Shown piece by piece: positions 4,229 through 52,935 of a stretch of 64,000 nucleotides of DNA (within the stretch, counting starts at the first letter, position 1; the number at the start of each line of letters is the position of its first letter). The translations under genes were made by a program, and so were the position numbers. Location of the stretch: positions 496,001 through 560,000 of the forward strand of contig JAJTWR010000431.1 of assembly GCA_021613335.1 (NCBI GenBank), written 5' to 3'. The stretch comes from Whitmania pigra (Eukaryota; Annelida; Clitellata; Hirudinida; Haemopidae). The notes below the pieces were generated by a model. The model saw only the letters and a list, made by a program, of their open reading frames with translations, was not told where the DNA came from and did no database searches.

Positions 4229-5499
4229 ATAAGATTCCAGAACCACTTACGACCAAACTCGAAGCGCCCGCTCCCGCCACAACCCTTCAGCAACGCTGGG
4301 CGAAGCTTCAGTCCGGCGAGCCCTCTGGGCCCATCGAGCAGCGCTGGACGAAGCACCAGTTCGAGATGAAGCTCGTCAACCCGGCGAACCGACGCAAGCA
4401 CAAGATCATCGTCGTCGGCACTGGCCTTGCCGGAGCGTCCGCCGCAGCTACGCTCGCCGAGCAAGGCTACGCTGTCGATGTCTTCTGCTACCAAGACAGC
4501 CCCCGCCGCGCCCACAGCATCGCTGCCCAAGGCGGCATCAACGCCGGAAAGAACTACCGCAACGACGGCGACTCGGTCTTCCGCCTCTTCTACGACACCG
4601 TGAAAGGCGGCGAGTGGCGCGCCCGCGAGTCGAACGTCTACCGCTTGGCCGAACTGTCGGTGAACGTCATCGACCAGTGCGTCGCCCAAGGAGTTCCCTT
4701 CGCCCGCGAGTACGGCGGTCTCCTCGACAACCGCTCCTTCGGCGGCGCCCAAGTTTCCCGCACGTTCTACGCGCGCGGGCAAACCGGCCAGCAGCTCCTG
4801 CTCGGCGCCTACCAAGCGCTCCAGCGACAAGCGGGTGCCGGCGCAGTGAACATCCACCCGCGGCACGAGATGCTCGACCTCGTGGTCGTCGACGGACAAG
4901 CCCGCGGTATCATCACCCGCGACCTCGTCTCCGGCGCCATCAAAGCGCACTCGGCCGACGCCGTGGTGCTCGCCACCGGCGGCTACGGAAACGTGTTTTT
5001 CCTTTCGACCAACGCCAAGGGCTGCAACACCACCGCCATCTGGCGTGCCTACAAGCGCGGCGCTGGTTTTGCGAACCCCTGTTTCACCCAGATTCACCCG
5101 ACCTGCATCCCGGTCAGCGGCGACTACCAGTCCAAGCTGACTTTGATGAGCGAATCGCTCCGCAACGACGGCCGAGTGTGGGTGCCGAAGAAGGCGCAGG
5201 ATCCACGCCACCCGAACGACATCCCTGAGGGCGAGCGCAGCTATATCCTCGAAATCAAGTACCCGAGCTTCGGCAACCTCGCTCCGCGCGACGTATCGAG
5301 CCGCGCGGTCAAAGAGGCCTGCGACGCGGGACTCGGCGTTGGACCTGGTGGTCGCGGCGTGTACCTCGACTTCAAGGACGCCATCGCCCGCCTCGGCCGC
5401 ACCCGCATCGAAGAGCGCTACGGGAACCTCTTCGAGATGTACGAGACGATTACTGGCGACAACCCCTACGAGCGCCCGATGCGCATCTACCCGGCGGTG

Positions 5500-21878: not shown

Positions 21879-22757
21879 ATGGTACCCGCTGACCGCACAC
21901 GGCAGATTCGCCGGGTCCTCTGGCTGGTGCTCATCGCCAACTGGGCGGTCGCTCTCGCGAAGACGGTTGTGGGTATTGCCATCCACTCGCAGGCAGTCAC
22001 CGCCGACGGCCTGCACTCGTTCATCGACGGCGCGAGCAACATCATCGGCCTCATCGCCATGTACTACGCGTCGCGCCCGGCCGACGACGGCCACCCCTAC
22101 GGGCACCAGAAGTTCGAGGCGATTGCGGCCCTCTCCATCGGCGCGATGATTGGCCTTGCGGTGATTGAGCTTGGCCACATGGCCATAAACTCCATCCTCG
22201 ACAATGTGCGCCCGGAAATCTCCAACAGCGTGCTGGTGATGATGGTGGTCACGCTCTTCATCAACATCGGCGTGAGCTACGCCGAACGACGTTCAGCCAA
22301 GAAGCTCTCCAGCACCCTCCTCGCCGCCGATTCCCAGCACACCGCCTCCGACGTGTTGGTGTCCATCGCGGTCATCGCCTCGCTGGTGTTGAGCCGCCTC
22401 GGCGTGCCCCGCGCCGACGGAGTCATCGCCCTTGTGGTGCTGTGCCTCGTGGCCGCCGCCGGATGGAACATCATCAAACAGGCCGCCGGCATCCTCGCCG
22501 ATGGAGCGCGGGTGAACCCCGAAGAGGTGAAGCGCATCTGCGCCGGGTTGCCGGAGGTGTTGGGCGTGCACGACATCCGGAGCCGCGGACTTGCTGGGGC
22601 GGTGTATGTCGACCTGAAAATCGACGTGGACCCGTCGCTCACCATCGCCCGCGCCCATGAAATCGCCGACAAGGTGGAAGAGGCCATCGGCCGCGCCTTT
22701 GCCGACGTAGTGGATGTCTTAGTCCACGTCGAGCCCGCCCACGCCGCGAGCAGCTAG
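21879..22757 (+). CDS. cation diffusion facilitator (CDF) transporter
   Basis: The 292-residue protein is a CDF-family metal/proton antiporter with six transmembrane segments and a cytoplasmic C-terminal domain (about 205-285). Site residues visible are TADGLHSFIDGASN in TM2 (H46 and D50) and AADSQHTASD in TM5 (H and D four apart), the HxxxD pairs of zinc-type members. It exports divalent metals such as Zn2+. The start is the ATG at 21879, 3 nt after the TonB-like stop. The gene ends exactly where the hairpin/minisatellite array begins. Confidence 0.9.
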   Translation: MVPADRTRQIRRVLWLVLIANWAVALAKTVVGIAIHSQAVTADGLHSFIDGASNIIGLIAMYYASRPADDGHPYGHQKFEAIAALSIGAMIGLAVIELGHMAINSILDNVRPEISNSVLVMMVVTLFINIGVSYAERRSAKKLSSTLLAADSQHTASDVLVSIAVIASLVLSRLGVPRADGVIALVVLCLVAAAGWNIIKQAAGILADGARVNPEEVKRICAGLPEVLGVHDIRSRGLAGAVYVDLKIDVDPSLTIARAHEIADKVEEAIGRAFADVVDVLVHVEPAHAASS

Positions 22758-22833
22758 CGGCGGCGCAAAATTCATGCCCGCTGGGGCGGGGCAACATTCA
22801 TGCCCTTCCGGGCGGGGGCGAAGGGGCAGGTCT

Positions 22834-22936
22834 GGTGACCCACAGTGGCCAATCCTTGATGAAAACTCGCGAAACACGCAAACGCGACTTGCGTGTTTTG
22901 ATGTGAATCATCCAGCATCGGCCTTTGTGGGTCACC
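22834..22936. repeat. nested hairpin copy 1
   Basis: Four nested complementary pairs fold the 103 nt: GGTGACCCAC with GTGGGTCACC (outer), GGCC with GGCC, GATGA with TCATC, and AAACACGCAA with TTGCGTGTTT (inner), around a 7-nt loop. The internal loops have equal lengths on both sides (3/3, 7/7, 9/9). This copy has all four pairs perfect. Confidence 0.9.
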
Positions 22937-23199
22937 GCACCCGCCGCTGTGGCTCCTCCCACTGCGGCGCCGCCCGGGTGGCTCAGAGCCTGAAGCGGCG
23001 CAAAATTCATGCTCGCGGGGCGGCGCACAATTCATGCCCATCGAGGCCGGAGCAGTATTCATCCGCCTCGGGGGCGGCGCAAAATCCATGCCCTTCGTGG
23101 CGGGGCAAAATCCCGGCCCTTCGTGGCGGCGCAAAATCCATGCCCGCTGGGGCGGGGCAACATTCATTCCCTTCCGGGCGGGGGCGAAGCGGCAGGTCT

Positions 23200-23302
23200 G
23201 GTGACCCACAGTGGCCAATCCTTGATGAAAACTCGCGAAACACGCAAATGCGACTTGCGTGTTTTGACGTGAATCATCCAGCATCGGCCTTTGTGGGTCA
23301 CC
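23200..23302. repeat. nested hairpin copy 2
   Basis: Same structure as copy 1, with all four stems intact and a few changes only in loops (for example the apical loop). It begins 366 nt after copy 1. Confidence 0.9.
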
Positions 23303-23566
23303 GCACCCGCCACTGTGGCTCCTCCCACTGCGGCGCCGCCCGGGTGGCTCAGAGCCTGAAGCGGCGCAAAAATTCATGCTCGCGGGGCGGCGCAAAATCC
23401 ATGCCCATCGAGGCCGGAGCAGTATTCATCCGCCTCGGGGGCGGCGCAAAATCCATGCCCTTCGTGGCGGGGCAAAATCCCGGCCCTTCGTGGCGGCGCA
23501 AAATCCATGTCCGCTGGGGCGGGGCAACATTCATTCCCTTCCGGGCGAGGGCGAAGCGGCAGGTCT

Positions 23567-23669
23567 GGCGCCCCACAGTGGCCAATCCTTGATGAAAACT
23601 CGCGAAACACGCAAACGCGACTTGCGTGTTTTGACGTGAATCATCCAGCATCGGCCTTTGTGGGTCACC
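23567..23669. repeat. nested hairpin copy 3
   Basis: The outer left arm reads GGCGCCCCAC instead of GGTGACCCAC, giving two mismatches with the unchanged right arm; the three inner stems are intact. It begins 367 nt after copy 2. Confidence 0.88.
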
Positions 23670-23828
23670 GCACCCGCCACTGCGGCTCCTCCCACTGCGG
23701 CGCCGCCCGGGTGGCTCAGAGCCTGAAGCGGCGCAAAAATTCATGCTCGCGGGGCGGCGCAAAATCCATGCCCATCGAGGCCGGAGCAATATTCATTCCC
23801 CTCGGGGCGAGGGCGAAGGGGCAGGTCT

Positions 23829-23931
23829 GGTGCCCCACAGTGGCCAATCCTTGATGAAAACTCGCGAAACACGCAAATGCGACTTGCGTGTTTTGACGTA
23901 ATTCTTCCAGCATCGGCCTTTGTGGGTCACC
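23829..23931. repeat. nested hairpin copy 4
   Basis: The outer left arm reads GGTGCCCCAC (one mismatch), and the right side of the GATGA/TCATC pair is changed (ATTCTTCC). The block after it lacks 15 nt present in most copies. It begins 262 nt after copy 3, matching four fewer 26-bp units. Confidence 0.88.
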
Positions 23932-24206
23932 GCACCCGCCACTGCGGCGCCGCCCGGGTGGCTCACCGCCTGAAGCTGCGCAAAAATTCATGCTCGCGGG
24001 GCGGCGCACAATTCATGCCCATCGAGGCCGGAGCAATATTCATCCGCCTCGGGGGCGGCGCAAAATCCATGCCCTTCGTGGCGGGGCAAAATCCCGGCCC
24101 TTCGTGGCGGGGCAAAATCCCGGCCCTTCGTGGCGGCGCAAAATCCATGTCCGCTGGGGCGGGGCAACATTCATGCCCTTCCGGGCGGGGGCGAAGGGGC
24201 AGGTCT

Positions 24207-24309
24207 GGTGACCCACAGTGGCCAATCCTTGATGAAAACTCGCGAAACACGCAAATGCGACTTGCGTGTTTTGACGTGAATCATCCAGCATCGGCCTTTG
24301 TGGGTCACC
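24207..24309. repeat. nested hairpin copy 5
   Basis: All four stems are intact as in copy 2. It begins 378 nt after copy 4, explained by one extra 26-bp unit and the 15-nt deletion in block 4. Confidence 0.9.
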
Positions 24310-24511
24310 GCACCCGCCACTGTGGCTCCTCCCACTGCGGCGCCGCCCGGGTGGCTCACCGCCTGAAGCTGCGCAAAAATTCATGCTCGCGGGGCGGCGC
24401 AAAATCCATGCCCGCTGGGGCGGGGGCGGGGGCGGGGGCGGCGCAAAATCCATGCCCGCTGGGGCGGGGCAACATTCATTCCCTTCCGGGCGGGGGCGAA
24501 GGGGCAGGTCT

Positions 24512-24614
24512 GGTGACCCACAGTGGCCAATCCTTGATGAAAACTCGCGAAACACGCAAACGCGACTTGCGTGTTTTGACGTGAATCGTCCAGCATCAGC
24601 CTTTGTGGGTCACC
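24512..24614. repeat. nested hairpin copy 6
   Basis: Outer and inner stems are intact, but TCATC is TCGTC and the right GGCC is AGCC. It begins 305 nt after copy 5. It is followed by four units, the last of which fades out at about 24775 before yraN. Confidence 0.88.
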
Positions 24615-24813
24615 GCACCCGCCACTGCGGCGCCGCCCGGGTGGCTCAGAGCCTGAAGCGGCGAAAAAATTCATGCCCATCGAGGCCGGAGCAGTATTCA
24701 TCCGCCTCGGGGGCGGCGCAAAATCCATGCCCGCTGGGGCGGGGGCGAAATCCATGCGCAGATCCCCCGAGCGCTGCATACCTTGAACAGGACGTTGTGC
24801 ATCGGGAGGGGTC

Positions 24814-25182
24814 ATGGACAGCCGAATGGAGCGGGGGCGTTGGGCGGAGGACCTGGTCGAAGAGTATGTCCGCAACAAGGGCTACCGCATCCGGGAGCGC
24901 AACGTGCGCACCCGCGGCGGAGAGCTCGACATCGTCGCCGAGCGCGGGCTGACGCTCGCCTTCATCGAAGTTCGCATGCGCAGCAGCACCCGCTTCGGCA
25001 CGCCCATAGAGACCATCAACTACGGCAAGCGGCAGCGGGTCATCCGGGCCGCCCAAGAGTACTGCCTTCGGCACCGGCTCTTCGCTCGCTCCATACGCTT
25101 CGACGTAGCTGGCGTCGGCCCGCAGGAGCGCGGCGGCGAAATCGAATACATCGAGGGCGCGTTCGAGGCCGAGTTGCCGTAA
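24814..25182 (+). CDS. yraN: YraN/UPF0102 family protein
   Basis: The 122-residue protein matches the UPF0102 family with a restriction-endonuclease-like (PD-(D/E)xK) fold: GRWAEDLVEEYV at the N-terminus, RTRGGELDIVA and LAFIEVRMRSS. The usual catalytic lysine of the family's VEVK is arginine here (FIEVRMR). Biochemical role of the family is not established. It is directly followed by rsmI (9-nt gap), a neighbour it has in many genomes. The ATG at 24814 has GGGAGGGG about 8 nt upstream, fitting a strong start. Confidence 0.9.
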   Translation: MDSRMERGRWAEDLVEEYVRNKGYRIRERNVRTRGGELDIVAERGLTLAFIEVRMRSSTRFGTPIETINYGKRQRVIRAAQEYCLRHRLFARSIRFDVAGVGPQERGGEIEYIEGAFEAELP

Positions 25183-45639: not shown

Positions 45640-47770
45640 TCATTGAAAACACGTCTTGAAGAGGGACCCCGGCGTTTGCTTGCAAGTATAGCCAGTTTCA
45701 CAATCTTCAGGAACGAGACATCTCTGGGTGCTGGTGCAGTGACCCGAACAGGAAGGAGTTGCGCACTTGTTATCATTGTCGCACCGGGAAGAGGAGCAAT
45801 CCCTGTGGAGCCTGCAACTAGCTTTGAGAGGGCAATTTTGGTCATCCTTGCAATTCTTGGCACACTTTCCTCCAATGCAGCTTCCCGACATACATTCGCT
45901 ATCTGCCGTGCAGGCATCATCGGCGAGACATGCCGAACCTGAGGCGCAGTCCAGTCGGGTGCATCGCCCATTCTTACAAACAGCTCCAGCAATCCACGCA
46001 GCGCACTGCGAATCTGTGGTGCACTTGGCACCAGGAGCACAGCTAAAGGCATCGGTACATACTGCAATCACCGGTTCGGTGCAGATCCCTCCAGCGCAAT
46101 TCCCCGACCTACATCCCTCCGGGCCACTGCACGCTGTGCCACCGTCACAGTAAGTAGTGCACTTCGGTGTCTCAGCTTGAAAACACGACTTGAAGAGAAA
46201 CCCCGGCGCTTGCTTGCATGTTAAGCCTGGTGCACAATCTGCATTAACGAGACATCTATCGGCGCTGGTGCAGTGACCCGTACATCGAGGAGCTATGCAC
46301 GTTTTATCATCGCCGCACGAAAAAGAGGAGCAATCCCCGGAAATACTGCAACTAGCTTTGAGAGGGCAATTTTGGTCATCCTTGCAATTCTTGGCACACT
46401 TTCCTCCAATGCAGCTTCCCGACATACATTCGCTATCTGCCGTGCAGGCATCATCGGCGAGACATGCCGAAACTGAGGCGCAGTCCAGTCGGGTGCATCG
46501 CCCATTCTTACAAACAGCTCCAGCCAGCCGCGCAGCGCACTGCGAATCTGTAGCGCACTTGGCACCAAGACGACAGCTATTGGCATCGGTACATACGGCA
46601 ATCACCGGTTCGGTGCAGATCCCTCCAGCGCAATTCCCCGACCTACATCCCTCAGGGCCACTGCACGCTGTGCCACCGTCACAGTAAGTAGTGCACTTCG
46701 GTGTCTCAGCTTGAAAACACGACTTGAAGAGAAACCCCGGCGCTTGCTTGCATGTTAAGCCTGGTGCACAATCTGCAGTAACGAGACATCTATCGGCGCT
46801 GCCACAGTGACCCGTACAGGGATGAGTTATGCACTTCTTATCCTCGCCGCACGAAAAAGAGGAGCAATCACTGTTGACCCTGCAACTGGCTCCGAGAGGG
46901 CAATTATGGTCATCCTTGCAATTCTGGGCGCACTTTCCTCCAAGGCAGCTTCCCGATAAACAATCGCGATCTGCCGTGCAGGCATCATCGGCGAGACATG
47001 CCGAAACTGAGGCGCAGTTCGGCCGCGTACATCGCCCATTCGTACAAGTATTCCCCACCAGCCACGCAGCGCACTGCGAATCTGTGGTGCACTTGGCACC
47101 AGGAGCACAGCTAGAGGCATCGGTACATACTGCAATCACCGGTTCGGTGCACTTCCCTCCAGCGCAATTCCCCGACCTACATCCCTCCGGGCCACTGCAC
47201 GCTGTGCCACCGTCACAGTAAGTAGTGCACGTCGGTGTCTCAACTTTAAAACACGACTTGTAGAGAAAACCCGGCGCTTGTTCGCAAGTGTAGCCAGTTT
47301 CACAATCTTCAGGAACGAGACATCTTCCGCCGCTGGTGCAGTGACCCGTACATCGAGGAGCTATGCACTTATTATCATCGCCGCACGAAAAAGAGGAGCA
47401 ATCCCCGGAAATACTGCAACTAGCTTTGAGAGGGCAATTTTGGTCATCCTTGCAATTCTTGGCACACTTTCCTCCAATGCAGCTTCCCGACATACATTCG
47501 CTATCTGCCGTGCAGGCATCATCGGCGAGACATGCCGAAACTGAGGCGCAGTCCAGTCGGGTGCATCGCCCATTCTTACAAACAGCTCCAGCCAGCCGCG
47601 CAGCGCACTGCGAATCTGTAGCGCACTTGGCACCAAGACGACAGCTATTGGCATCGGTACATACTGCAATCACCGGTTCGGTGCAGATCCCTCCAGCGCA
47701 ATTCCCCGACCTACATCCCTCCGGGCCACTGCACGCTGTGCCACCGTCACAGTAAGTAGTGCACTTCGGT
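45640..47770 (-). repeat. four tandem 534-bp coding modules (178 aa each)
   Basis: The end of the large Cys-rich gene is four consecutive modules of about 534 bp, with boundaries near 46170, 46707 and 47240. Modules 2 and 4 (46171-46706 and 47241-47770) are nearly identical, including a 390-bp segment that translates to the same antisense peptide; the others differ more. Each module carries about 20 cysteines in the same order. Confidence 0.9.
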
Positions 47771-47774
47771 GTCT

Positions 47775-48300
47775 CAACCGGCGTTGTGCAATACCCACCG
47801 TCGCATTTGCCCGACTTGCAGTTGCTGTCGGCGGTACACGCTGTGCCTCCGTCGCAATTTGCCGTACACGGTGGTGTCCACAACCGGCGTTGTGCAATAC
47901 CCACCGTCGCATTTGCCCGATTTGCAGTTGCTGTCGGCGGTACACGCTGTGCCTCCGTCGCAATTTGCCGTACACGGTGGTGTCTCAACCGGCGTTGTGC
48001 AATACCCACCGTCGCATTTGCCCGATTTGCAGTTGCTGTCGGCGGTACACGCTGTGCCTCCGTCGCAATTTGCCGTACACGGTGGTGTCTCAACCGGCGT
48101 TGTGCAATACCCACCGTCGCATTTGCCCGACTTGCAGTTGCTGTCGGCGGTACACGCTGTGCCTCCGTCGCAATTTGCCGTACACGGTGGTGTCTCAACC
48201 GGCGTTGTGCAATACCCACCGTCGCATTTGCCCGATTTGCAGTTGCTGTCGGCGGTACACGCCGTGCCTCCGTCGCAGTTTGCCGTGCACGGCGGCGTCA
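47775..48300 (-). repeat. 105-bp coding minisatellite (35-aa Cys-rich repeats)
   Basis: Five nearly identical 105-bp copies start at 47775, 47881, 47986, 48091 and 48196. The first spacing is 106 because of the one-base insertion; the others are exactly 105. Two more diverged copies extend to about 48500. The copies encode CTANCDGGTACTADSNCKSG-type motifs. Confidence 0.92.
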
Positions 48301-48855
48301 CTTCCGGGGTTCTACACACCCCTCGATCGCACTTACCGGACTCGCAGTTGTTGTCGGCTATGCACGTGGTGCCATTTTTACAGTTTGCCGTGCACGGTGG
48401 AGTAACTGGAGCTGTACAAACACCATTCGCGCACTTGCCCGACTTGCAGTTACTGTCGGTGGTGCACGTTGTGCCACCATCACAGTTTGCCGTGCAGCTC
48501 CCGGTCTCAGGATCAGTGGTACACGCGACAGCAACAACACAGAGAATACCAACGAGGGTACGAGTATTCATAAGGCTCCAAATGTGCGACAAGACGAATG
48601 AAAAAGCGTCCTGGATGCCGTGGCTATGGACTTGCCAACCCACTAATTTTTTTCTTCACCATTCGCCAGCAAATTCGGGCGACATTCACCGATTTTAACC
48701 AGGCTGGAAGACCGAGAGTTTCCACAGCCGCGTAGAATGACCTACACCATGCTGTTGGGGAGACCTATAAGGCCCGTTGTGGTTCAGGTGATACTCAGTC
48801 CCCTACGGCGGCTACTATCGCTCGCCGGTCGCGCTTCGATGAGAAGGCCGAGGGG

Positions 48856-49721: not shown

Positions 49722-50557
49722 TCACTGGCACGTCTTGTAGAGGAACCCTGGAGCTTGCTTACAGGTTAAGCCCGGTTTACAATCTGATTGCTGTAGACAG
49801 TTTTGTGACAGACTGCAGAGACTATTCGCCCCACACGGATTATTTTGGCATATATTATTCACACCAGAGCAGGACCCCGAACTGCATTCATCATCATCGA
49901 TACAGCTAGTACCATTGGGGCAATTTTGAGTGTCTATGCAATTTGCGGCGCACAAATTGTTTACACAGCTCCCAGACAGACAATCCTCATCTACGGAGCA
50001 AGGTGCGCCAGCAAGGCATGTGGAAGAGCTGGCGCAGTTCGGTTGAGTGCACCGATTATTCACACACGTATTCCCGGCCGCCCACGAATTGCAAGCACGG
50101 TCATTGTCGCATCGAGCTCCTAGAGCGCATTTTTCTGTGCAGGTGGAAGCGACAGGAGTCGCGCACACCTTTCCATCACAAAACCCCGACGCGCAGGACG
50201 CAGAACTCGTGCAGGCCATGCCGTTGGCACACCCGGTTTTTGTAGGACATGTTGGATTGGTTGCGGGCTTGCAGACGTTTTGATCGCAATTACCCGACGC
50301 GCAGCCCCCGGGGCCACTGCAGGCCGTACCATCGACGCAGCCGACCGTACATGGAGGAGTGGTCCTGGGCTTGCAAGTGCCCTGGTCGCATTTGCCGGTC
50401 GCACATTCGGCGTCGGTAGTGCACTTTATTCCGGCATCTCCGCCGCCATCTCCTCCAGCATCTCCGCCGCCATCTCCTCCGGCATCTGTTCCAGCATCAC
50501 AGTTGGACGAGTTCGCGCACTTTGAAGGAATTCCAGAGAATAACAAGAAAAGGCTAC

Positions 50558-50605
<48 letters not shown>

Positions 50606-50624
50606 AGGGGTTACGAATACTCAT
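49722..50624 (-). CDS. Cys-rich secreted protein with microsatellite signal peptide
   Basis: From the ATG at 50624 (MSIRNPLISLSLSLSLSPLS) the signal peptide is built by a GA/CT dinucleotide tract. The paralogue's lipobox (LVAFSC) is out of frame here and reads RSLFLLFSGIPS, so the protein may be exported by signal peptidase I instead of lipidated, or not exported. The mature part has a DAGTDAGGDGGGDAG linker, then about 30 cysteines in module order and the tail CKQAPGFLYKTCQ. 300 residues. An in-frame extension to 50678 includes the conserved leader and is probably untranslated. Confidence 0.8.
50558..50602. repeat. GA microsatellite inside a signal peptide
   Basis: A 45-nt alternating GA tract with one interruption (GG near 50572) codes for Leu-Ser repeats on the minus strand. 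The paralogue at 51840-51918 has only a short imperfect version (GAGAGAGATATATAGAGAGA). Dinucleotide tracts of this length slip during replication and change frame by two bases per unit. Confidence 0.95.
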
Positions 50625-50698
50625 AAAGCTCCAAAAAAAGTTTGCATGACCACCAGTCATGTGAACTGCGAATAGCAACTGCGCTTATAGCGTAAAAT

Positions 50699-50727
50699 TT
50701 ATCGGCCCACTAGCAGTTTTCTCGCAA
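50699..50727 (-). promoter_or_regulatory. candidate promoter upstream of Cys-rich gene 49722-50624
   Basis: On the minus strand TTGCGA (50727-50722) and CGATAA (50704-50699) are 17 nt apart. The same arrangement recurs at homologous positions upstream of two paralogues. A palindrome-like GCGCTTATAGCG follows. The hexamers are only fair matches to sigma-70, so this is a hypothesis. Confidence 0.35.
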
Positions 50728-50937
50728 CGCATGACGATTGCAGTAAAAATGAAAAACAACTGCACTAATGATGGCTCAAGCTTCATCTCGGCGGTAAGGA
50801 GCTTGAGGGGTGCGAACTGGAGAAAATTCTTGAAAGCCACCACAGCGATGGGACCGCAGCGGAATGACCTCGCAGAGCGATAAAACCGCAGGGTGACACC
50901 CACCCTGCGGTCCGTATTACGAGTCTACCTCAATAGC

Positions 50938-51918
50938 TCACTGGCACGTCTTGTATAAGAACCCTGGAGCTAGCTTACAGGTTAAGCCCGGTTTACAATC
51001 TGATTGCTGTAGACAGTTTTCGAGCTCACTGCAGAGACTTCTCGCCCCACACGAAGGATCTTTGCATATCTTTTCCACACCAGAGCAGAACCCCGAACTG
51101 CAATCTTCAGAAGCGATACAGCTAGTACCATTGGGGCAATTTTGAGTGTCTATGCAATTTGCTGCGCACAAATTGTTTACACAGCTCCGGGACCGACAAT
51201 CCTTATCTACGGAGCAAGGTGCGCCAGCAAGGCATGTGGAAGAGCTGGCGCAGTTCGCTTGAGTGCACCGATTATTCTCACAAGTATTCCATGCGGCGCA
51301 CGTTTTGTTTACACAGCGCTGGGACAGACAATCCTTATCTGCGGAGCAAGATGCGCCATCAAGGCAGCTCGAAGTTGCGGCACAATTTGGCTGATTGCAC
51401 TGATCATTCGGACATGTACGCATTTCGGCACAAGCTGTGCTACTTTCGCATCGAGCGCCGACAGCACAGTTTTCTGTGCAGGTGGAAGCGACAGGAGTCG
51501 CGCACACCTTTCCATCACAAAACCCCGACGCGCAGGACGCAGAACTCGTGCAGGCCGTGCCGTTGGCACACCCGGTTCTTGTAGGACATGTGGTATTGGT
51601 TGCGGGCTTGCAGACGTTTTGATCGCAATTACCCGACGCGCAGCCCCCGGGGCCACTGCAGGCCGTACCATCGACACAGCCGACCGTACAGGGAGGGGTG
51701 GTCGTGGGCTTGCAAGTGCCCTGGTCGCATTTGCCGGGCGCACATTCGGCGTCGGTAGTGCACTTTATTCCGGCATCTCCGCCGCCATCTCCTCCGGCAT
51801 CTGTTCCAGCATCACAGTTGGACGAGTTCGCGCACTTCGAAGGAATTCCAGAATAACAAGAAAAGGCTACGAGAGAGATATATAGAGAGAGATAGATTAA
51901 GGGGTTACGAATACTCAT
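50938..51918 (-). CDS. Cys-rich lipoprotein
   Basis: The 326-residue protein starts MSIRNPLIYLSLYISLVAFS then CYSG, a clear lipoprotein signal with lipobox VAFSC. An Asp/Ala/Gly linker (DAGTDAGGDGGGDAG) is followed by about 35 cysteines in module order and the CKLAPGFLYKTCQ tail. Relative to its neighbour it carries an extra internal CTENCAVGARCESSTACAEM-type segment. It is likely anchored to the outer membrane. It is the intact reference for the signal peptide of the adjacent paralogue. Confidence 0.85.
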   Translation of the reverse strand: MSIRNPLIYLSLYISLVAFSCYSGIPSKCANSSNCDAGTDAGGDGGGDAGIKCTTDAECAPGKCDQGTCKPTTTPPCTVGCVDGTACSGPGGCASGNCDQNVCKPATNTTCPTRTGCANGTACTSSASCASGFCDGKVCATPVASTCTENCAVGARCESSTACAEMRTCPNDQCNQPNCAATSSCLDGASCSADKDCLSQRCVNKTCAAWNTCENNRCTQANCASSSTCLAGAPCSVDKDCRSRSCVNNLCAANCIDTQNCPNGTSCIASEDCSSGFCSGVEKICKDPSCGARSLCSELENCLQQSDCKPGLTCKLAPGFLYKTCQ

Positions 51919-51992
51919 AAAGCTCCGAAAGAGGTTTGCATGACCACCAGTCATGTGAATTGCGAATAGCAACTGCGCTTATAGCGAAAAAT

Positions 51993-52021
51993 TTATTGAC
52001 CCACTAGCAGTATTCGCGCAA
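51993..52021 (-). promoter_or_regulatory. candidate promoter upstream of Cys-rich gene 50938-51918
   Basis: TTGCGC (52021-52016) and CAATAA (51998-51993) are separated by 17 nt on the minus strand. The sequence between and around them is conserved upstream of the flanking paralogues, with a GCGCTTATAGCG palindrome downstream. The prediction rests on this conservation. Confidence 0.35.
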
Positions 52022-52140
52022 TGCATGACGATTGCAGTAAAAATGAAAAACAACTGCACTAATGGTGGTTTCAGCTTCATCTCGGCGGTAGCGAGCTTGA
52101 AGGGTGCGAGATTCCCGCTCTACGAGTCTACCTCAAAAGC

Positions 52141-52935
52141 TCACTGGCAGGTCTTGTAGAGGAACCCCGGCGCCAACTTACAAGCAGCACCACTTTTGCA
52201 ATCGGAGTCCGCGAGACATTTTGCAAGCAGAGGGCATTGACCGGCACAGGTCGGTGTTGTGCACTTCCCATCGCAGGCGCCCGAGCTGCATTGATCCTTT
52301 GAGTTACAAGGACTTCCAACAGGACAGTTTAAGTCGTCCTTGCAATTCTTGGCGCAGTATCCTCCAACGCAACTTCTAGAAAGACAATTGTCATCTGCGG
52401 TGCAAGATTCACCAGCCAAGCACAAATCTTTTCGGCATGCTGGGTTACTGGCGCATTGCGGAGGGGGGGAGGCGCAGTTTTGCTGTGCACACCGAAAACT
52501 GACGCAGCTAGTCCCTGTTCTGATCGAGTTACAATCAGCGTCGGTGCCGCATTTCGCCCCAAGATCGCAGTTGTTGTGACAGGTAGTAGCCACGGGGGTT
52601 GTGCACACCTTGCCATCGCAATAGCCCGAAGCACAGGCCGCAGAACTTGTGCAGGCCGTGCCAACGTCACAGCCGACCGTACATGGAGTAGTAGTCGTGG
52701 GCTTGCAAGTGCCCTGGTCGCATTTGCCGGGCGCACATTCGGCGTCGGCAGTGCACTTTATTCCTCCATCTCCTCCAGCCTCTCCTCCTCCATCTCCTCC
52801 AGTGTCTCCTCCGGCATCTGTTCCAGCATCACAGTTGGAAGATTTCGAGCACTTTGAAGGAAATTCAGAATAACAAGAAAATGCTACAAGAGGGAGAATG
52901 ACTGGTAGCGAGATTAAGTGGTTACGAATGCTCAT
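52141..52935 (-). CDS. Cys-rich lipoprotein
   Basis: The 264-residue protein starts MSIRNHLISLPVILPLVAFS, then CYSEFPSK, a lipoprotein signal with lipobox VAFSC. The linker DAGTDAGGDTGGDGGGEAGG and about 30 cysteines follow, including the distinctive AQQNCASPPPQCASNPACRK segment, and the protein ends CKLAPGFLYKTCQ. It is the most diverged of the three MSIRN-type paralogues and the first in transcription order. Confidence 0.85.
   Translation of the reverse strand: MSIRNHLISLPVILPLVAFSCYSEFPSKCSKSSNCDAGTDAGGDTGGDGGGEAGGDGGIKCTADAECAPGKCDQGTCKPTTTTPCTVGCDVGTACTSSAACASGYCDGKVCTTPVATTCHNNCDLGAKCGTDADCNSIRTGTSCVSFRCAQQNCASPPPQCASNPACRKDLCLAGESCTADDNCLSRSCVGGYCAKNCKDDLNCPVGSPCNSKDQCSSGACDGKCTTPTCAGQCPLLAKCLADSDCKSGAACKLAPGFLYKTCQ

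What the first reader, a model, noticed from the sequence alone, without database searches (positions are those of the whole stretch)
22758..24775. 2-kb array with six copies of a 103-nt nested hairpin separated by 26-bp units
Each copy folds by four nested complementary pairs with symmetric internal loops (3/3, 7/7, 9/9) and a 7-nt apical loop, seen directly. The array is directly after a CDF transporter gene and before yraN. It does not fit a CRISPR, a REP/BIME or a standard transposon. It could be a structured RNA, a protein-binding array or a mobile repeat family. Stems in copies 3, 4 and 6 are broken in part without compensation, which argues against strict RNA selection.
Basis: seen in the sequence. 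Interest (0 to 1): 0.75.

Follow-up and report, generated by a model that had tools for sequence, protein, structure and literature searches.

The report
Local array of a dispersed palindromic repeat
A 2-kb stretch between two bacterial genes is a tandem array of a roughly 220-base non-coding palindromic repeat that also sits, more diverged, at several other places on the same chromosome; it looks like the short mobile or parasitic repeats known from many bacteria and is new as a family, not as a kind.

Summary
The array is real: six 103-nt hairpins, 95-100% alike, alternate with runs of a 26-bp unit (35 in all) in a 367-bp higher-order period. The window lies on a 2.94-Mb bacterial contig of a 178-Mb assembly; its nearest GlyQ matches (72-76%) include Myxococcaceae MAGs. 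Diverged copies (71-87% identity between sites) lie at seven or more other sites on that contig, between genes at the six sites read; three hold several copies, one mainly half-palindromes. The 26-bp unit is the element's own 5' module. Pairing shows no covariation beyond shuffles, and 22 of 28 single changes at pairs break them: RNA selection is not supported. Yet stem columns are better conserved than internal loops (87% vs 70%; p=0.00025), so the palindromic blocks matter as sequence. Best reading: a lineage-specific palindromic intergenic repeat (ERIC/BOX/MITE-like), amplified here by recombination or slippage (inferred). No homologue turned up in the searches made, which had limits. New member of a known kind.

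The parts
22758..24775 (+). whole array: higher-order repeat of 26-bp units plus palindromic core plus 3' module (period 367 bp, with deletion variants)
22834..22936 (+). palindrome copy 1 (33 of 34 pairs)
23200..23302 (+). palindrome copy 2 (33 of 34 pairs)
23567..23669 (+). palindrome copy 3 (31 of 34 pairs)
23829..23931 (+). palindrome copy 4 (31 of 34 pairs)
24207..24309 (+). palindrome copy 5 (33 of 34 pairs; its 111-nt match is identical to that of copy 2)
24512..24614 (+). palindrome copy 6 (32 of 34 pairs)
22762..22805 (+). 26-bp units, 2
22997..23171 (+). 26-bp units, 7
23364..23538 (+). 26-bp units, 7 (same order of unit types as the run before)
23731..23800 (+). 26-bp units, 3 (shortened run)
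23978..24178 (+). 26-bp units, 8 (one unit type doubled)
24371..24483 (+). 26-bp units, 4, with a short GGGGCG run inside
24661..24759 (+). 26-bp units, 4
21879..22757 (+). CDF cation-efflux transporter gene, upstream neighbour
   Evidence: PF01545, PF16916
24814..25182 (+). UPF0102/yraN gene, downstream neighbour
   Evidence: PF02021

Best explanation
A lineage-specific, non-coding, palindromic interspersed repeat of about 220 bp has spread over this bacterial chromosome and was amplified in tandem here. Its parts are a 5' module of some 26-50 bp with a tiny GCCC-loop-GGGC hairpin, a 103-nt inverted-repeat core, and a 3' module ending about GGCTCA..GCCTGAAGCGG. Shown: at least eight sites on one contig, 71-87% identity between sites, 95-100% inside the array, a 367-bp higher-order period with unit gains and losses, and several copies at three other sites, at one mainly half-palindromes. 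Inferred: the copies were dispersed by a transposase acting in trans on the palindrome (ERIC/BOX/MITE-like). Also inferred: the array then grew by unequal recombination or replication slippage, which hairpins and 26-bp units would favour, in a gene junction that tolerates inserts.
For: Whole-assembly BLASTN found other copies only on contig C360: 28 rows (both strands ring because the core is palindromic) and 27 rows with another copy as query, which adds a site at 1,112,251; the tool scores only its best candidates, so these are lower bounds. Fourteen full copies align through the core; at the six other sites read they lie between genes recognised by Pfam or by reading. The 5' module of dispersed copies matches the 26-bp unit. 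Identity is 95-100% within the array and 71-87% between sites. At 2.358-2.360 Mb left arms are repeated without right arms. Core GC is 0.45-0.56 in the 14 copies against 0.617 for the window. In seven site representatives, of 238 pair cells 203 are unchanged and paired, 22 single changes break a pair, 6 keep it, 2 are double changes (one paired) and 5 have a gap.
Against: No target-site duplication and no clear terminal inverted repeat were seen by eye in aligned flanks. No mobilising element was identified. Stem columns are better conserved than internal loops, which neutral decay after insertion does not predict. ORFs of up to 272 aa cross the array and ORFs cross some dispersed copies too; coding was set aside because 367 and 26 are not multiples of 3, without a codon test. 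No empty site is at hand: yraN was found in 0 of 30 relatives' loci around the CDF homologue (flanks up to 1.5 kb, some shorter), so insertion cannot be polarised.
Confidence: 0.75

Rival explanations
1. A structured RNA (non-coding RNA or cis-regulatory leader/3' UTR) whose hairpin is kept by selection on the transcript.
For: Stable fold in six of the seven strands folded (z -3.7 to -8.3, 0 of 200 shuffles as low); stems more conserved than internal and apical loops.
Against: The 1.752-Mb copy folds little better than chance (z -1.9, 8 of 200 shuffles as low). In the window Rfam rings only for three tRNAs elsewhere. Covariation score 0.051 against 0.049 in shuffles, 205 of 500 as high; pairs with a double change 1 against 1.4. 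22 of 28 single changes at pairs break them. Half-palindromes are amplified at 2.358 Mb. Orientation relative to neighbouring genes differs between sites (my reading).
Confidence: 0.08
2. An array of binding sites for a protein (nucleoid, replication or segregation factor, or a recombinase) that reads the palindromic blocks as double-stranded DNA; copy number is selected.
For: Palindromic blocks conserved as sequence: inner stem 93%, middle stem 89.5%, outer stem 82%, internal loops 70%; no covariation, as expected for a DNA site.
Against: Few sites found, with very uneven copy number; the flanking modules are copied too; the conservation may only reflect what dispersal needed.
Confidence: 0.12
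3. REP/BIME-type palindromes moved by a REP-associated tyrosine (Y1) transposase.
For: Intergenic, palindromic, clustered; the 26-bp unit can form a small hairpin (by eye).
Against: The one Y1_Tnp match in the assembly is on contig C53, none on C360; the 103-nt core is far longer than the 20-40 bp of REPs (abstract start of PMC3733652 in the listing).
Confidence: 0.02
4. Integron attC array.
For: A series of imperfect hairpins with internal loops.
Against: No GTTRRRY or RYYYAAC (motifs recalled, from no call) on either strand of the array; no integron-integrase match over the curated cut-off: 13 weaker rows, two places on C360, and such weaker matches ring in all 14 control genomes; no gene cassettes between hairpins.
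Confidence: 0.01

Closest known systems
ERIC (enterobacterial repetitive intergenic consensus)
   Same: Imperfect palindrome of just over 100 nt (ERIC size recalled), intergenic, dispersed, diverged copies. ERIC copy numbers of 30-711 per genome are given in passages of PMC10969869.
   Different: Fewer copies found; extra 5' and 3' modules and local higher-order arrays. No ERIC sequence was compared; whether Rfam holds an ERIC model was not checked.
BOX elements of pneumococcus
   Same: Modular element in which one module (boxB there, the 26-bp unit here) occurs in variable tandem numbers and the whole can form a stem-loop (passages of PMC3049150).
   Different: No BOX sequence was compared; here the multiplied module lies at the 5' end, and whole elements are also tandemly repeated.
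MITEs, e.g. Correia elements
   Same: Short, non-coding, highly base-paired, mostly intergenic, lower GC than surroundings (features from passages of PMC10969869 and PMC3049150).
   Different: No clear terminal inverted repeat at the outer ends and no target-site duplication seen; no parental insertion sequence identified.
REP/BIME
   Same: Extragenic palindromes in clusters.
   Different: Core 103 nt rather than 20-40 (listing); no Y1 transposase match on the contig.

Membership tests
MITE | short, non-autonomous, non-coding, several dispersed copies | tested here: met
   about 220 bp; at least eight sites on one contig; period and unit length not multiples of 3; no codon test made
MITE | terminal inverted repeats | tested here: inconclusive
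   long inverted repeat in the core, none clear at the outer ends, judged by eye
MITE | target-site duplication | tested here: inconclusive
   none evident by eye in aligned flanks; no empty site at hand
MITE | mobilised in trans by a related insertion sequence in the same genome | not tested
   only the Y1 transposase and integron integrase families were searched
ERIC | sequence match to ERIC | not tested
   Rfam at gathering threshold rings only for tRNAs, but presence of an ERIC model there was not checked and no ERIC sequence was compared
BOX | modular element with variable tandem module | tested here: met
   runs of 2 to 8 units of 26 bp; likeness of layout, not kinship
BOX | sequence homology to boxA/boxC | not tested
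   no BOX sequence was fetched
REP/BIME | Y1 (RAYT) transposase in the genome | tested here: not met
   none on C360; one match on C53, whose origin was not examined
attC array | R-box motifs and integron integrase | tested here: not met
   (motifs recalled)
CRISPR | near-identical repeats with unique spacers | tested here: not met
   26-bp units are contiguous and the longer intervals are themselves repeats, 95-100% alike in the core
structured RNA | covariation supporting pairing | tested here: not met
   (13 distinct rows, 34 pairs)

The most novel reading that the evidence does not exclude
The palindromic blocks are a conserved DNA recognition site of a lineage-specific recombination or chromosome-organising protein. 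In this reading the array is a bacterial satellite with higher-order repeats, kept amplified at a few chromosomal positions because it works there.
Probability: 0.1. Interest if true: 0.6.

Novelty: new member of a known kind. Interest (0 to 1): 0.27.

Why it matters
It documents a palindromic repeat family, not found elsewhere by the searches made here, in a small-genome bacterium whose closest sampled relatives are Myxococcaceae. It shows higher-order tandem structure, with ordered unit types gained and lost, in bacterial intergenic DNA. Such an array would be a candidate length marker between strains and a place to watch hairpin-driven amplification. It does not change any known mechanism.

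Tried and rejected
Structured RNA: Rfam, RNAalifold (28 pairs, 1 with a change on both sides, covariation term +1.1) and pair counts gave no support beyond a stable fold. Homologues elsewhere: one exact pattern in genome contigs and in viral contigs, 0 matches each; blastn against phages and plasmids, none; five relatives' genomes, 25 rows at E<=1, best E 0.027, which I take as chance; covariance model in 96 genomes of the family, 0; DNA in 145 genomes of the order, 0; blastn in 80 GlyQ loci, one 17-base row. Limits: the tool itself warns that the empty answers show nothing without a genome known to match; one search used stricter filters and scored 40 candidates per genome; a diverged homologue would escape the exact pattern; genomes very near the window's may be left out of the collections. 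Model R1 finds all 14 copies in held loci, but 10 of the 14 are its training rows. Protein coding: set aside by frame only. Terminators: 9 terminator-like sites against 3.2 (sd 1.9) in shuffles, 8 of them on the minus strand from 26-bp units; not convincing but not excluded. RAYT and attC: rejected. Synteny: yraN near the CDF homologue in 0 of 30 loci. 16S identification did not complete. Papers: keyword listings showed no title on this family; that is no proof that none is in print.

Mended on rechecking: the count of pair-breaking single changes (26) had taken 4 gap cells of the 1.752-Mb copy as breaks, and one of its three double changes was a gap; one search recounts without gaps.

Full report
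Observation. The 2-kb stretch between the CDF gene (21879-22757) and yraN (24814-25182) holds six 103-nt imperfect palindromes and 35 units of about 26 bp. A 113-nt stretch with copy 2 folds far better than shuffles (z -8.3, 0 of 200). TRF finds a 367-bp period. The order of 26-bp unit types repeats from run to run (2, 7, 7, 3, 8, 4 and 4 units), so the array is a higher-order repeat with whole units gained or lost.

Genome context. The window is part of contig C360 (2.94 Mb) in an assembly of 178 Mb and 381 contigs: a bacterial contig in what, by size, is probably a eukaryote assembly (inference). GlyQ from the window is 72-76% identical to its four best matches, two Myxococcaceae MAGs, a deltaproteobacterial MAG and a record titled Comamonas sp. 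KCTC 72670. That last title is probably a mislabel (my judgement): its genome is held in the same family as the Myxococcaceae MAG (G001). In that family 88 of 96 genomes have a CDF match at E<=1e-20, at most 58% identical. So no close relative is held.

Dispersed copies. BLASTN with copy 2 against the whole assembly gives 28 rows, all on C360; with the 1.914-Mb copy as query 27 rows, all on C360, one site new. These are lower bounds, since only 15 and 12 first-look candidates were scored; itself missed the full copy at 2.3596 Mb that one search found. Sites besides the window: 1.112 Mb (not read); 1.189 Mb, between an FtsK gene and an enoyl-CoA-hydratase-like gene; 1.752 Mb; 1.914 Mb, between rho-like and phosphatase-like genes; 1.941-1.944 Mb, two full copies, a half copy and a truncated one, with an SfsA gene before the full copies and a Fic gene after them; 2.200 Mb, two copies, after an RNA pseudouridine synthase gene; 2.358-2.360 Mb, one full copy and several left-arm copies (SfsA, Fic, FtsK and pseudouridine synthase by Pfam, the other names by my reading of translations). 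ORFs without a family assignment overlap some copies; I take them as chance ORFs of GC-rich DNA. Fourteen full copies were read and aligned. Identity is 95-100% within the window array, 98% and 88% for the two other same-site pairs, and 71-87% between sites.

Element anatomy. Flank alignments show homology from about GAGCAG.CACCGGCGCAAGAATCATGCCC to about GGCTCA..GCCTGAAGCGG, roughly 220 bp, with blurred ends. The 5' module is the 26-bp unit of the window: the unit pattern at up to one mismatch has 20 matches in the assembly, 19 of them on C360 and close to full or partial copies. By eye most units keep a GCC(C)-loop-(G)GGC mini-stem with differing loops; no statistic was made on this.

RNA or DNA? 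Folding: seven strands were folded (copy 2 of the window on both strands and five dispersed copies); z runs from -8.3 to -3.7, except the 1.752-Mb copy at -1.9 with 8 of 200 shuffles as low. On 13 distinct rows and 34 pairs 90.2% of cells pair, against 89.7% when 3' letters are dealt out anew (110 of 500 shuffles as high); double-changed pairs are 1 against 1.4, and the covariation score 0.051 against 0.049. Sliding the partner by 1-3 columns drops pairing to 37-43%, so the palindrome is real but shows no sign of upkeep by compensation. In seven site representatives, of 238 cells 22 single changes break a pair, 6 keep one, 1 double change pairs, 1 does not, and 5 cells have a gap (which replaces the gap-inclusive count). 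Against pure decay: stem columns average 87% pairwise identity, internal loops 70%, the apical loop 47%; the stem-loop difference has permutation p 0.00025 with columns treated as independent and one representative chosen per site. I read this as constraint on the palindromic blocks as sequence, either for dispersal (recognition by a mover) or for binding by a host protein.

Mechanism. Dispersal followed by local tandem growth explains the main facts: scattered diverged copies, near-identical local copies, periodicity, gain and loss of 26-bp units, and half-palindromes amplified at 2.358 Mb. Both steps are inferred; no relative with an empty site and no second strain was available. The mover is unknown. 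A Y1 transposase match is absent from C360, no integron integrase reaches its cut-off, and the two integrase-like places on C360 look Xer-like (my reading of weak scores that also ring in all 14 control genomes). A fragment that reads like a resolvase N-terminus lies near the truncated copy at 1.943 Mb (by eye). Transposase families other than Y1 were not searched.

Known kinds. BOX elements are modular, with a tandemly variable boxB between boxA and boxC, and their authors hold them to be parasitic (abstract and passages of PMC3049150). MITEs are short, intergenic and highly base-paired, and ERIC is counted among them (passages of PMC10969869). REPs are 20-40 bp (abstract start of PMC3733652, listing). 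The present element works like these in layout; no sequence of theirs was compared with it. Terminal repeats and target duplications remain unshown, so I do not file it as a proven MITE.

Verdict. Real, more than chance, best explained as local amplification of a lineage-specific palindromic intergenic repeat. Interest is modest.

Noticed in passing
window 47768-48493 (minus-strand ORFs 47774-48643 and 45640-48219): A 105-bp tandem repeat (6.9 copies) lies in Cys-rich repeat ORFs; the repeat motif is read in two overlapping frames, so the gene may be frameshifted.
   Followed up: partly
L030:2100-6001 (G000:C360:2358100-2362000): A larger repeat island: left-arm copies of the element in periods of 58, 166 and 224 bp, right-arm-like copies in a 124-bp period, and an 11-copy 15-bp tandem repeat.
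   Followed up: partly
L049:1257-1400 (about C360:1943.4 kb): A short stretch reads by eye like the N-terminus of a serine resolvase, near a truncated copy of the element and a Fic-family gene; possibly a decayed mobile island.
   Followed up: no
L032:3413-3504 and 5327-5418: A fragment 86% identical to part of an IMS-family (dinB-like) gene lies beside the element copy at 2.200 Mb, with a RhuM-family gene between them.
   Followed up: no
whole window (G000:C360): The bacterial contig is 2.94 Mb, small beside most genomes of the Myxococcaceae-MAG family (many 9-13 Mb, though four are 2.1-3.9 Mb), and lies in a 178-Mb assembly: perhaps a reduced, eukaryote-associated lineage.
   Followed up: partly
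window 50430-52830: Several 12- and 24-bp tandem repeats and a GA dinucleotide run within 2.4 kb.
   Followed up: no
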